From Sporichthya polymorpha DSM 43042 (GTDB lineage Bacteria; Actinomycetota; Actinomycetes; Sporichthyales; Sporichthyaceae), in the NCBI RefSeq assembly GCF_000384115.1, contig NZ_KB913029.1, positions 716,907-780,906 on the forward strand: 64,000 nt of DNA, given 5' to 3'. Shown here in pieces: positions 51,451-54,278 of the stretch (its first letter is position 1; each line of letters begins with the position of its first letter). The notes under the pieces are model-generated. The model was not told the origin of the DNA and made no database searches. It saw only the letters and a program-made list of their open reading frames with translations. The position numbers and the translations under genes were made by a program.

Positions 51451-51807
51451 TCAGGCGCTCTCGGACTCCTCCCGCGGCGCGAGGGACGCGACGAGCGGGG
51501 CGTCGATGCCGAGCCGGCCGAGCTTGGCGGCACCGCCCGGGGAACCGAGGGGACCGTCCTTCCCCGGGAGGGTCTGGGCGAAGAAGGCCTCGTTGTCGGC
51601 GAGGTGGGGACGCCAGGCCTCGGGGAGGTCGTCCTCGTAGTAGATCGCCTCGACCGGGCAGACCGGCTCGCAGGCGCCGCAGTCGACGCACTCGTCCGGG
51701 TGGATGTACAGGGCCCGCGCGCCCTCGTAGATGCAGTCGACCGGGCATTCCTCGATGCACGACCGGTCCGTCACGTCGACGCAGGGCTCACCGATCACGT
51801 AGGTCAT
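51451..51807 (-). CDS. fdxA: 7Fe ferredoxin (FdxA-like)
   Basis: This 118-residue ferredoxin has cysteines at 9, 17, 21, 25, 40, 43, 46 and 50, in the arrangement of mycobacterial FdxA-type [3Fe-4S][4Fe-4S] ferredoxins ([13 protein letters not shown] and [12 protein letters not shown]). A C-terminal extension is normal for the type. It transfers electrons, possibly to the P450. It is divergent from the small ferredoxin gene at 51886, and the two share a 31-bp operator between them. Confidence 0.94.
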
Positions 51808-51812
51808 GGCGA

Positions 51813-51843
51813 CAGTTTATACAATCACGTCTTGTAGAAACTG
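51813..51843. promoter_or_regulatory. 12-7-12 operator between the ferredoxin genes
   Basis: CAGTTTATACAA at 51813-51824, seven bases, then TTGTAGAAACTG at 51832-51843: an inverted repeat matching at 11 of 12 arm positions. A closely related site lies in front of the HTH gene at 52761-52791, which makes that regulator the likely binder. Confidence 0.7.
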
Positions 51844-51885
51844 CGGGACGCCAGAATGGGTCCGTCGGCGAGAAGAGGTGGGTTC

Positions 51886-52101
51886 ATGACCAAGCCGTTC
51901 GTCCGGGTGAACCGGGACCGGTGCCAGGGGGTGCAGATGTGCATCGCCTGGGCCCCCGGAGCGTTCGAGGCCGGGCCCGACGGGCTGACGATCTTCCGCC
52001 CCGACGGGGAGTGGACGCTCGAGCAGCTCGAGGAAGCCGTCGAGAACTGCCCCACCGAGACGCTGACCCTGGTCCTGGACGGGGACGAGGAGACCGGCTA
52101 G
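51886..52101 (+). CDS. Small [3Fe-4S] ferredoxin, P450-partner type
   Basis: This 71-residue ferredoxin has C13, C19 and C55 (CQGVQMC and ENCPTETL), with Val where a fourth cysteine would be. It is thus a single [3Fe-4S] ferredoxin like those that reduce actinobacterial P450s. The ATG at 51886 starts MTKPFVRVNRDRC. It overlaps the end of the HTH gene by four bases, convergently. It is a candidate partner for the P450 at 6495, though the two genes are far apart. Confidence 0.92.
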   Translation: MTKPFVRVNRDRCQGVQMCIAWAPGAFEAGPDGLTIFRPDGEWTLEQLEEAVENCPTETLTLVLDGDEETG

Positions 52102-52754
52102 CGCAGCTTGGTCAGGCGAGCCAGGCACAGATCCGGGGCAACGAACGGCTCCAGCTGATCAGCCGTCACGTCCGCGCCCCACTCCTCGAGCGCTCCCTGC
52201 ATCACCCCGAGATGCAGCGAGCACACCACCGCCGACCCCGGCTCCGCGAGTTCGAGGAACGGGCAGTTCCGCAGGCCGATCTGCGTGTGCCCACCCTCCC
52301 GTCGGCGCTCGGGGGCGAAGCCGATTTCGTCGAGCAGGTCGACCAACCGACTGACCGGACTCCGCCGCGCCGCTCCTCCGTCCGCCGCCGCCAGTGCGCG
52401 ACCCTGCGCACGACCGGCCGCCAACGCCTGACCGGCCGGGTCCGGGCCGGCCGCGAGACCGGTCACCAGCGCCGCCGCCAGGAAGTGGTAGTTCCGCGGT
52501 CCGGCCGGATCCATCTTCGGCACCGCCCGGTACAGCACCGGCGGCCGGCCCGGACCGCACCGGTCGGGCCGCACCTGCTCGACGCGTCCCTGCTCCAGCA
52601 ACGCGTCCAGGTGCCACCGCACCGTGTTGGCGTGGACCCCGAGCTCCGCCGCGACGTCGAAGACCGTCAGCGGGTCGGCCGCGTCCGCCAGGACCCGGAG
52701 CACCTCCGCGCGCCGGCCGCGGGCCGGCCCGTCCGCGCGAGGCCCGTCCGTCAT
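52098..52754 (-). CDS. Winged-helix regulator with C-terminal Cys-rich domain (SufR-like)
   Basis: This 218-residue regulator has an ArsR/DeoR-type winged helix (ADPLTVFDVAAELGVHANTVRWHLDALLEQG near residues 27-57, then CGPGRPPVLYR). The C-terminal domain contains NCPFLEL, VVCSLHLGVMQG and DLCLARL. Three cysteines plus His in this order are typical of the SufR-like regulators that carry an Fe-S cluster. An operator in front of its own gene and another between the ferredoxin genes suggest an autoregulated Fe-S or redox regulon. The cluster itself is inferred. Confidence 0.85.
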   Translation of the reverse strand: MTDGPRADGPARGRRAEVLRVLADAADPLTVFDVAAELGVHANTVRWHLDALLEQGRVEQVRPDRCGPGRPPVLYRAVPKMDPAGPRNYHFLAAALVTGLAAGPDPAGQALAAGRAQGRALAAADGGAARRSPVSRLVDLLDEIGFAPERRREGGHTQIGLRNCPFLELAEPGSAVVCSLHLGVMQGALEEWGADVTADQLEPFVAPDLCLARLTKLR

Positions 52755-52760
52755 AGGTCG

Positions 52761-52791
52761 CAGTTTATCCAACGCACCCTTTGACAAACGG
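52761..52791. promoter_or_regulatory. 12-7-12 operator upstream of the HTH gene
   Basis: CAGTTTATCCAA at 52761-52772, seven bases, then TTTGACAAACGG at 52780-52791; the arms match at 9 of 12 positions. The left arm differs by one base from that of the ferredoxin operator at 51813. It begins 7 nt upstream of the regulator's ATG, a typical autorepression position. Confidence 0.65.
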
Positions 52792-52792
52792 A

Positions 52793-52821
52793 GGATTTAT
52801 ATCGTGTTACGATATAAATCC
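52793..52821. promoter_or_regulatory. Perfect 13-3-13 palindrome
   Basis: GGATTTATATCGT, three bases (GTT), ACGATATAAATCC: a perfect AT-rich inverted repeat in otherwise GC-rich DNA, between the divergent regulator gene and the gene at 52917. It lies 96 nt before that gene's ATG. The core TATCGT-N3-ACGATA is shared with the palindrome at 45831. Confidence 0.65.
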
Positions 52822-52916: not shown

Positions 52917-54278
52917 ATGGCCGAGGCCTTCGACTGGACCACGGTCGTCGACTACACCCGTCGGGTGCCGGTCGATCCCCCGCTGACGCAGTACGAACTG
53001 CCGGGCATCACCGAGGAGATGCACAAGGACGTCCCGGTCGCGGTCGTGCCGCTCTGGCACGCCGTCGTGACGGGGCGTCTGGCGTTCCCGGCCGATGACC
53101 GCGCGACGCTGCGCACAGCCCAGGCCCGCCTGGACCGAGCGCTCGCCGAGATCGAGCGCGTGTACCCGCTGCAGCCGGGCGGCCTCTTCGTCCAGGTCGC
53201 CTACGGCACGCCGTACTTCCGGGAGCGGTTCCCGACGAGCCTGACCGACGAGTTCATGCCGAAGTCGGTGATGCCGGGCAGCGAGGGCGAGTGGGCGCTC
53301 GTCGACAGCATCCGGTTCCCCATGGACCCGCCGGACCTGCTCCTGGAGCAGAACGACATCTGCCTCCACTTCAAGAGCGACTACCGCCACCACATCGAGG
53401 ACGTCATCGACGCCCTCTTCTCCCCCGGCGACCACCGCCTCAACGGCATCCCCGCCCAGGGTGTGTTCATCGGCGATCTGGTCACCGTCACCTCGACCCG
53501 CCGCGGATTCGCCGGACGGAGCATGCCGAAGCTCGTCGGCGAACACCTCGGCATCGCCGGCGCCGACCGGATCCCGGACGGCGCGATGCTGTTCCTCGGC
53601 TTCACGTCCAGCCACGTGCACGGCCTCGCCGCGGGGAACCTCGCCAGCTTCGAGACCCTCCCCGGGTTCACCGACCAGCTTCCCGGGAGCTACTTCGCGC
53701 ACGGCACCGCAATGCACCTCTCCCACATCGCGCTCGACCTGGAGCGGTGGTACGCGTTCACCCCACGGGAGCGCCTGCACCGCATGTTCCACCCCCGGCG
53801 CACGGAGACCGAGGAGGTCCTCAGCCCGGACCAGTCCCCCGCGACCACGACGTTCAAGGAGGAACGGGACGGCGACGCCGCCCGCTACCGACTCGTCGGC
53901 CACAACGAGCAGATGCAGTTCCTCTCCCGCGTCGAGACCGACACCGTCACCGCCTACGGCGAGAAGGTCGAGCGCGGCACCGCGTTCTTCCTGCGGCAGG
54001 ACTTCGACACCGTCGAGAACCCCTTCGGCTTCTCCGTCGACGAACCCGTCTCCCCCGAACCTCGCGCCGGGGTGCACTTCGTCGGCCTCGGGCCCTGCTC
54101 CCAGCACTACGAACTCATGCGGCGCGAGATGGACAGCCCGGATCTGAAGGAGCGTCACGGCCTGCCGGACGAGAACCTCGGCTTCACCGACGTCCTCACC
54201 ACCACGCACCGGCAGAACTACCTGCTACCGCCCCGGGCGCACCGGTCCTTCCCGCTGGCCGAGGTGCTCGTCTCCTGA
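52917..54278 (+). CDS. Dyp-type peroxidase-like (DUF7405-like) protein, tentative
   Basis: This 453-residue protein has no signal peptide. The order NDICLHFKSDYRHHIEDVIDAL near residue 143, GVFIGDLVTVTS and RRGFAGRSMPK near 182-200, then GSYFAHGTAMHLSHIALDLERWY near 257-280 recalls Dyp-like heme peroxidases and the DUF7405 group, with His residues that could bind heme. The assignment is tentative. GAAGGAGG lies before the ATG at 52917. The palindrome at 52793 probably controls it. Its last 54 nt overlap the convergent gene at 54225. Confidence 0.65.
   Translation: MAEAFDWTTVVDYTRRVPVDPPLTQYELPGITEEMHKDVPVAVVPLWHAVVTGRLAFPADDRATLRTAQARLDRALAEIERVYPLQPGGLFVQVAYGTPYFRERFPTSLTDEFMPKSVMPGSEGEWALVDSIRFPMDPPDLLLEQNDICLHFKSDYRHHIEDVIDALFSPGDHRLNGIPAQGVFIGDLVTVTSTRRGFAGRSMPKLVGEHLGIAGADRIPDGAMLFLGFTSSHVHGLAAGNLASFETLPGFTDQLPGSYFAHGTAMHLSHIALDLERWYAFTPRERLHRMFHPRRTETEEVLSPDQSPATTTFKEERDGDAARYRLVGHNEQMQFLSRVETDTVTAYGEKVERGTAFFLRQDFDTVENPFGFSVDEPVSPEPRAGVHFVGLGPCSQHYELMRREMDSPDLKERHGLPDENLGFTDVLTTTHRQNYLLPPRAHRSFPLAEVLVS

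What the first reader, a model, noticed from the sequence alone, without database searches (positions are those of the whole stretch)
51813..52791. Shared 12-7-12 operator links two ferredoxins and a Cys-containing regulator
CAGTTTATACAA-N7-TTGTAGAAACTG lies between the divergent ferredoxin genes, and a related site, CAGTTTATCCAA-N7-TTTGACAAACGG, lies just upstream of the HTH gene. The regulator has three C-terminal cysteines plus His like SufR. The layout predicts an autoregulated iron-sulfur sensor controlling electron carriers. I do not recognise the operator sequence as one described for SufR.
Basis: partly seen in the sequence, partly recalled or inferred. Interest (0 to 1): 0.7.

Follow-up and report, generated by a model that had tools for sequence, protein, structure and literature searches.

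The report
ArnR-type iron-sulfur regulator controls ferredoxins
Two ferredoxin genes and their neighbouring regulator gene share a DNA switch that many actinobacteria conserve, and the regulator looks like a relative of a known nitric-oxide-sensing iron-sulfur repressor rather than of the iron-sulfur assembly repressor SufR.

Summary
A 31-bp palindrome lies between divergent fdxA and a 3Fe-4S-type ferredoxin gene; a weaker copy lies just upstream of the wHTH gene. With up to 2 mismatches in 14 fixed bases (spacer 7), these are the only two places in the 5.5-Mb genome.

The operator, GTTTWYACAA-N6/7-TTGTRWAAAC, lies within 300 bp upstream of fdxA or the orthologous regulator in 79 of 80 related loci. 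The strict form occurs in 14 of 296 class genomes, all with the regulator; fdxA is in 290. In 58 of 59 measurable sites the gene-proximal arm ends in a TANNNT -10-like hexamer shortly before the start codon, which fits repression by promoter occlusion.

The protein is not SufR: a separate SufR candidate lies beside sufB. Its Cys/His pattern and predicted sensor fold match ArnR of Corynebacterium, a [4Fe-4S] nitric-oxide sensor (PMC12343034). Some orthologs neighbour narGHJI or DUF2249 genes; own-genome paralogs neighbour an hmp-type and a hemerythrin gene.

Best reading: a new ArnR-type clade, an autoregulated [4Fe-4S], probably NO-responsive repressor of ferredoxins. Cluster, DNA binding and signal are untested.

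The parts
51451..51807 (-). fdxA, seven-iron-type ferredoxin (118 aa), target gene
   Evidence: NCBIfam FdxA_Actino equivalog 177.2 bits, cut-off 125
51813..51843 (.). Operator site 1 (12-7-12 inverted repeat; core 51815-51841) shared by fdxA and the divergent ferredoxin gene
   Evidence: homologous sites in related loci
51814..51819 (-). Predicted -10 hexamer TAAACT of fdxA inside the operator, 6 nt before the ATG (leaderless geometry)
   Evidence: sequence; TANNNT at this place in 58 of 59 related sites
51886..52101 (+). small 3Fe-4S-type ferredoxin (71 aa), target gene
   Evidence: Pfam Fer4_15, Fer4_13, Fer4_19 above cut-off; C-X5-C and CP motif in the translation; 3Fe-4S type is inferred from that spacing
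52098..52754 (-). ArnR-type regulator: wHTH (about 8-81) plus Bet3/V4R-like sensor domain (about 84-218) with C164, C178, H181, C210
52761..52791 (.). Operator site 2 (core 52763-52789) in front of the regulator gene, autoregulatory; weaker promoter-distal arm
   Evidence: arms identical in sister genome G002
52762..52767 (-). Predicted -10 hexamer TAAACT of the regulator gene, 7 nt before its ATG
   Evidence: sequence, geometry as
52793..52821 (.). Separate perfect 13-3-13 palindrome in front of the DUF7405 gene; next to site 2 but a different motif, probably another regulator's operator
52917..54278 (+). DUF7405 protein gene, divergent from the regulator; membership of the regulon uncertain
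   Evidence: Pfam DUF7405 125.8 bits

Best explanation
The wHTH protein (52098-52754) belongs to an ArnR-type clade of dimeric [4Fe-4S] repressors. Holo-protein binds the GTTTWYACAA-N6/7-TTGTRWAAAC operator. At fdxA and at its own gene the operator covers the -10 region of a leaderless promoter, so binding blocks RNA polymerase. Nitric oxide (or another agent that damages the cluster) releases it, inducing the seven-iron ferredoxin FdxA, the small 3Fe-4S-type ferredoxin and more regulator. In this genome the regulon is essentially this locus. Shown here: the operator, its conservation, its co-occurrence with the regulator, the promoter geometry, the invariant Cys3/His set and the predicted fold. 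Inferred: DNA binding by this protein, dimer, cluster, NO as signal, and repression rather than activation.
For: Site above 14 bits within 300 bp upstream of fdxA or the regulator in 79 of 80 genome-contig loci; 84 of 109 loci overall, best of 327 shuffled loci 12.3 bits. Strict operator in 14 of 296 class genomes (reversed control in 2), all 14 among the 76 with the regulator at E<=1e-30 (Fisher p 2e-9), while fdxA is in 290 of 296. Operator precedes the regulator in 20 of 21 loci without fdxA. TANNNT hexamer in 58 of 59 sites, TAAACT in 55, start codon 6-9 nt after the arm. C164, C178, H181 and C210 each in 106 of 106 homologs of 45% identity or more; C-X13-C-X31-C in 110 of 111. ArnR: Cys179/193/223, conserved His, [4Fe-4S], TRAPPC3-like sensor domain, DNA binding lost on nitrosylation (PMC12343034: passages, outline with abstract, Discussion). 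Predicted C-terminal domain aligns with Bet3/TPC6 (2cfh_D, Z 14.3, rmsd 2.7 over 132) and MopR/PoxR sensor domains (Z 11.2-11.6). narI is the nearest recognised same-strand gene upstream of the regulator in 5 of 80 loci (gap 118-625 nt); DUF2249 in 37 of 80. Own-genome paralogs diverge from an hmp-type flavohaemoglobin gene and from a hemerythrin-DUF2249 gene; the hmp one has a related site of 19.8 bits.
Against: No experiment shows cluster, NO response or DNA binding for this clade. In the window the partners are ferredoxins, not nar, hmp or DUF2249. Regions with narK and its upstream DNA from four genomes thought to be Corynebacterium hold no site above 5.8 bits, and seven nar/arnR regions there none above 6, so the ArnR operator itself seems to differ. 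62 of the 76 genomes with the regulator lack the strict operator; 7 of 28 regulator loci have no site above 16 bits. The small ferredoxin's side of site 1 has no clear TANNNT hexamer. Site 2 has a poor distal arm, and its TTTGACA could be part of a promoter for DUF7405. The matrix was trained on the loci in which sites were counted, and the 80 loci are mostly Mycobacterium and near relatives, so not independent.
Confidence: 0.7

Rival explanations
1. SufR-like sensor of Fe-S status: the cluster reports Fe-S supply or iron, and the ferredoxins are adjusted to it. NO would be only one of several agents that remove the cluster.
For: Same overall plan (wHTH plus C-terminal cysteines); ferredoxins are Fe-S clients; M. 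tuberculosis Rv1460 (SufR) also needs three cysteines (PMC6034842, passages).
Against: Separate SufR candidate at suf in the same genome. E in place of H181 and C-X12-C in three aligned SufR sequences. Those three fall outside a 112-tip clade (support 0.95) that holds this clade and the hmp-linked paralogs. Gene company includes nar, hmp-type, hemerythrin and DUF2249 genes; suf genes were not looked for around the orthologs. Operator differs from CAAC-N6-GTTG.
Confidence: 0.16
2. The Cys3/His site holds zinc, and the V4R-like pocket binds a small organic ligand, as in MopR/PoxR sensors; ferredoxins are induced for an oxygenase or P450 substrate.
For: The predicted domain matches MopR/PoxR aromatic sensors and archaeal TRAPPC3. 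TRAPPC3 templates are described as zinc-bound, and ArnR preparations held about 0.5 Zn per protein (PMC12343034, passages).
Against: The characterised relative binds [4Fe-4S] with nearly the same Cys pattern. Identified neighbours include nitrate reductase, DUF2249 and an oxidase; methylase and cupin neighbours are uninformative.
Confidence: 0.08
3. The palindrome is the binding site of another regulator, or just overlapping promoter elements, and the neighbouring wHTH gene is incidental.
For: The site does contain -10-like hexamers. DNA binding by this protein is unproved, and many genomes with the regulator lack the strict site.
Against: Strict sites were found only in genomes with the regulator (14 of 14) although fdxA is in 290 of 296. 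Sites stay with the regulator where fdxA is absent (20 of 21). Both arms are conserved, including the promoter-distal one.
Confidence: 0.06

Closest known systems
ArnR of Corynebacterium glutamicum (Cgl1185; represses narKGHJI and hmp)
   Same: wHTH plus TRAPPC3-like sensor domain; three cysteines with C-X13-C and a conserved His; narI is the nearest recognised upstream gene in 5 of 80 orthologous loci; own-genome paralog beside an hmp-type gene.
   Different: Last Cys spacing X31 instead of X29; 27-31% identity between the window protein and ArnR-like proteins of presumed Corynebacterium; targets are ferredoxins; operator not found in four narK regions there. The published ArnR site sequence was not readable here.
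Rv2621c-type regulators of Mycobacterium (called ArnR-like in PMC12343034)
   Same: Membrane protein and methylase genes around the regulator in many of the loci (68 and 38 of 80) match the annotation of Rv2620c and Rv2622 (PMC10470581, passage).
   Different: Rv2621c itself was not examined by sequence; the window lacks the methylase and has fdxA plus a second ferredoxin.
SufR (cyanobacteria, Rv1460, Streptomyces avermitilis)
   Same: wHTH plus C-terminal cysteines; autoregulated repressor.
   Different: suf linkage, cysteine spacing, E versus H at position 181, and operator CAAC-N6-GTTG.
NsrR (Rrf2 family NO sensor)
   Same: Role suggested here: [4Fe-4S] NO-responsive repressor (NsrR role from the PMC12343034 passages).
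   Different: Different protein family; no Rrf2 model among the Pfam matches.

Membership tests
ArnR-type regulators | N-terminal wHTH and C-terminal Bet3/TRAPPC3-like sensor domain | tested here: met
   AlphaFold2 model pLDDT 82.3, pTM 0.60; 2cfh_D Z 14.3, rmsd 2.7, 132 aligned, model 84-218. Foldseek alone gave no E below 0.001
ArnR-type regulators | Three C-terminal cysteines with C-X13-C and a conserved nearby His | tested here: met
   C164-X13-C178-X2-H181-X28-C210; 106 of 106 close homologs. ArnR is C179-X13-C193-X29-C223 (positions), so the last spacer differs by 2. C-X13-C-X2-H printed for 6 of 7 presumed Corynebacterium loci, not for L191
ArnR-type regulators | [4Fe-4S] cluster in each subunit of a dimer | not testable with these tools
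   needs anaerobic purification
ArnR-type regulators | Loss of DNA binding on nitrosylation by NO | not testable with these tools
   needs in vitro assay
ArnR (orthologous function) | Controls narKGHJI and hmp | tested here: not met
   In this genome the only two spacer-7 sites are at fdxA/ferredoxin and the regulator; an hmp-type gene sits beside a different paralog
ArnR (orthologous function) | Shares the ArnR operator in narK promoters | tested here: inconclusive
   No site above 5.8 bits in four regions holding narK and its upstream DNA from unnamed presumed Corynebacterium genomes (narK recognised by eye); the published ArnR site could not be read
SufR | Located with and repressing the suf operon | tested here: not met
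   A SufR candidate is a separate gene upstream of sufB
SufR | C-X12-C-X13-C-X14-C cluster motif | tested here: not met
   C-X13-C-X31-C here; SufR motif from PMC8593673 (passages)
SufR | Binds CAAC-N6-GTTG | tested here: not met
   The conserved element is GTTTWYACAA-N6/7-TTGTRWAAAC; which protein binds it is inferred
SufR | NCBIfam TIGR02702 above cut-off | tested here: not met
   13.3 bits against 178.8, residues 17-76 only; the model is cyanobacterial
Rv2621c-type clade | Sequence orthology to Rv2621c | not tested
   Only neighbours compared, from published annotation

The most novel reading that the evidence does not exclude
This clade is a widespread actinobacterial counterpart of NsrR: an Fe-S nitric-oxide repressor with its own operator, whose core regulon in many lineages is a seven-iron ferredoxin plus the regulator, extended by DUF2249 proteins, nitrate reductase, OsmC or oxidase genes. 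FdxA would then be a dedicated nitrosative or low-oxygen electron donor.
Probability: 0.43. Interest if true: 0.72.

Novelty: new variant of a known kind. Interest (0 to 1): 0.58.

Why it matters
It gives a precise operator, a conserved promoter geometry and a likely cognate regulator for a family whose biochemistry I found described only for Corynebacterium ArnR, and extends it to ferredoxins in Mycobacterium, Nocardia, Micromonospora, Nonomuraea and others. It makes the question of how actinobacteria that lack NsrR sense nitric oxide testable with one 31-bp probe, and gives FdxA a physiological context.

Tried and rejected
SufR membership was considered first and dropped. The idea that the palindrome is only a pair of divergent -10 elements was dropped because both arms are conserved and the site goes with the regulator. 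The Rv2034-type site reported in Rv2621c/Rv2622 promoters (PMC3338718, passages) has a different motif (CCGTAAGT repeats) and was not pursued. A spacer-6 hit at 4113 kb of the own genome has GC-rich arms and looks like an unrelated hairpin. PDB sequence search gave only weak HTH matches. Foldseek alone gave no match below E 0.001; the structural claim rests on VIA-align Z. Gene calls are rough, and one cluster there mixed fdxA with the regulator, so counts come from tblastn; one search was used only to locate sites and neighbours.

Literature: searches listed no paper that I saw to describe this operator; I opened passages or sections of eleven papers only. Two Corynebacterium papers searched for the ArnR site held none of my site terms except one 'promoter' in a reference. 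The library holds open-licence papers only; the original ArnR papers were not looked up, and the S. avermitilis and 2021 M. tuberculosis SufR papers are not held. A published ArnR site of the same form is not excluded.

'narI directly upstream' became 'nearest recognised gene upstream', because in three of those loci a small opposite-strand frame was called between them. Confidence in the best reading went from 0.72 to 0.70, the SufR-like rival to 0.16, the incidental rival to 0.06, and the novel case to 0.43, because the regulator loci without a site are now counted.

Full report
WHAT IS THERE. The locus holds fdxA (51451-51807, -), a small 3Fe-4S-type ferredoxin gene (51886-52101, +), a wHTH regulator gene (52098-52754, -) and a DUF7405 gene (52917-54278, +). 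Site 1 (51813-51843) separates the two ferredoxin genes; site 2 (52761-52791) precedes the regulator. The relaxed pattern GTTTNNNCAA-N7-TTGNNNAAAC with up to two mismatches finds exactly these two places in the 5.5-Mb genome (reversed control 1), and in the sister genome the two orthologous places plus one more (control 2). The spacer-6 version finds one GC-rich hairpin-like place in each, control 0. With up to three mismatches to GTTTATACAA-N7-TTGTAKAAAC only site 1 is found. Between the two species the arms of site 2 are identical and its spacer is not.

CONSERVATION OF THE OPERATOR. Orthologs of the regulator in other actinobacterial families carry the same palindrome, first seen in L004 (before fdxA) and L005 (before a small ferredoxin gene). 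A genome-contig scan confirmed 555 relatives and kept the best 80 loci, most of them Mycobacterium and near relatives, with Micromonospora, Nonomuraea, Streptosporangium, Nocardia, Nocardioides, Ornithinimicrobium and others. An iterated half-site matrix found sites above 14 bits in 84 of 109 loci; spacers are 6 (65), 7 (17), 5 (1) and 8 (1); the best of 327 shuffled loci scored 12.3. In 79 of the 80 genome-contig loci a site lies within 300 bp upstream of fdxA or of the regulator; the exception is L064. The matrix was trained on these loci, so the count is descriptive. In 819,297 bp of the 80 loci (spacers 6 and 7) there are 83 hits of 24 bits or more and 8 between 12 and 24. Site 2 at 18.8 bits therefore stands out from real sequence; 5.12 Mb of Markov sequence gave none of 10 bits or more.

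THE OPERATOR GOES WITH THE REGULATOR. An independent strict pattern was run over 296 genomes of the class: 14 have it, and 2 have the reversed control. All 14 are among the 76 genomes with the regulator at E<=1e-30; Fisher p = 2e-9. A tighter cut chosen afterwards (33 genomes, E<=2.2e-75) gives p = 2e-15; it is post hoc. FdxA is in 290 of the 296 at E<=1e-15, so fdxA alone does not bring the operator. Among 21 genomes searched by handle, 15 have the strict pattern and 3 the control. In the 80 loci fdxA lies directly 5' of the regulator in 59; in 20 of the 21 without fdxA a site still precedes the regulator. Against this, 62 of the 76 genomes with the regulator lack the strict pattern, and of 28 regulator loci fetched and scanned, 7 have no site above 16 bits (L143, L147, L148, L149, L156, L163, L165), among them Streptomyces-sized genomes. 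There the operator has diverged, been lost or never existed.

HOW IT PROBABLY WORKS. In 59 sites followed by an FdxA-type start codon, the gene-proximal arm is typically TTGTRTAAAC; arm and next base give TAAACT in 55 and a TANNNT hexamer in 58; the start codon follows 6-9 nt after the arm, 8 in 44. In actinobacteria a TANNNT -10 element at this distance implies a leaderless transcript (general knowledge). In the window the same geometry holds for fdxA (arm to ATG 7 nt) and for the regulator (8 nt). It does not clearly hold for the small ferredoxin, which has a ribosome-binding-site-like GAGGTGG. The simplest mechanism is occlusion of the -10 region by a dimer on the palindrome. This is inference from position; no binding was measured.

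WHAT THE REGULATOR IS. C164, C178, H181 and C210 occur in 106 of 106 homologs of 45% identity or more. In 17 further ones (under 45%, E<1e-15) C164, C178 and H181 occur in 17 and C210 in 16. In 40 weaker ones position 181 is mostly N. Spacing is C-X13-C-X31-C in 110 of 111. ArnR of C. glutamicum has Cys179, 193 and 223 (C-X13-C-X29-C) and a conserved His, binds a [4Fe-4S] cluster per subunit, loses DNA binding on nitrosylation, and has a TRAPPC3-like sensor domain (PMC12343034: passages, outline with abstract, Discussion). The AlphaFold2 model of the window protein (pLDDT 82.3, pTM 0.60) has a wHTH and a C-terminal domain that aligns with Bet3/TPC6 (Z 14.3) and with MopR/PoxR sensor domains (Z 11.2-11.6). 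Foldseek itself gave no hit below E 0.001. The genome's SufR candidate is a separate gene next to sufB, similar only over about 75 residues of HTH. In a midpoint-rooted FastTree of 164 tips, three SufR sequences fall outside a 112-tip clade, support 0.95, that contains the window protein and the hmp-linked paralogs; the own SufR was not in that tree.

SIGNAL. Evidence for NO is contextual. Families found anywhere in the 80 loci: a small membrane protein 68, cupin 63, fdxA 59, methylase 38, DUF2249-cupin 37, DoxX 33, narH 7, narI 7, COX1-type 5, universal stress protein 3, and others in 1 or 2 (family names). In 5 loci narI is the nearest recognised same-strand gene upstream of the regulator, 118-625 nt away, as described for ArnR. 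DUF2249 genes are induced in haloarchaeal denitrification (PMC11218638, passages). Extra operator copies precede OsmC in M. elephantis (L129) and a DUF2249 gene in G034 (L130), and lie at the 5' end of a molybdopterin/cytochrome b561-type gene in M. szulgai (L127). In the own genome one paralog diverges from a globin-FAD-NAD flavohaemoglobin gene with a related site (ATTTTTCCAA-N6-TCGTAGAAAA, 19.8 bits) and another from a hemerythrin-DUF2249 gene without a clear site (2.4 bits). The mycobacterial members look syntenic with Rv2620c-Rv2622 (annotation in a PMC10470581 passage). Rv2621c is named among regulators up-regulated on day 1 in a nitrite study (PMC6593118, passage). Rv2621c itself was not compared by sequence.

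AGAINST. I saw no assay for this clade. Two of the four have CGCAACAT / TGTTGCG-like repeats instead. Zinc with an organic ligand remains a rival because the sensor fold is shared with MopR/PoxR.

NOVELTY. The regulator kind is known (ArnR). The ferredoxin-linked clade and its operator with promoter geometry did not turn up in nine literature searches. I call it a new variant of a known kind.

Noticed in passing
window 52793-52821 and 52917-54278: Perfect palindrome GGATTTATATCGT-GTT-ACGATATAAATCC in front of the DUF7405 gene. Related sites (up to 3 mismatches) occur at three places in this genome and three in the sister genome, control 0: also between a universal stress protein gene and a MarR gene followed by a cupin-like gene (L188, L185), and near a molybdopterin-binding protein gene (L186, L187). 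Probably the operator of that MarR protein.
   Followed up: partly
L180:2952-4787 (own genome near 1.18 Mb): ArnR-type paralog divergent from an hmp-type flavohaemoglobin gene with a variant operator; a likely functional counterpart of ArnR in this genome.
   Followed up: partly
L179:1459-2250 and following HTH (own genome near 0.60 Mb): Another ArnR-type paralog divergent from a hemerythrin-DUF2249 fusion gene; no clear operator by the matrix (best 2.4 bits).
   Followed up: partly
L008:1361-1447: Only a short fdxA-like piece precedes the regulator; the frame ends soon after the first cluster motif, so the ferredoxin there looks truncated.
   Followed up: no
L127:3908-4111: In M. szulgai an operator copy lies between a molybdopterin/cytochrome b561-type gene and a short fdxA-like fragment.
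   Followed up: no
L203 and L206 narK upstream regions: Two of four presumed Corynebacterium narK upstream regions hold CGCAACAT...TGTTGCG-like inverted repeats, candidates for the ArnR site of that genus.
   Followed up: no
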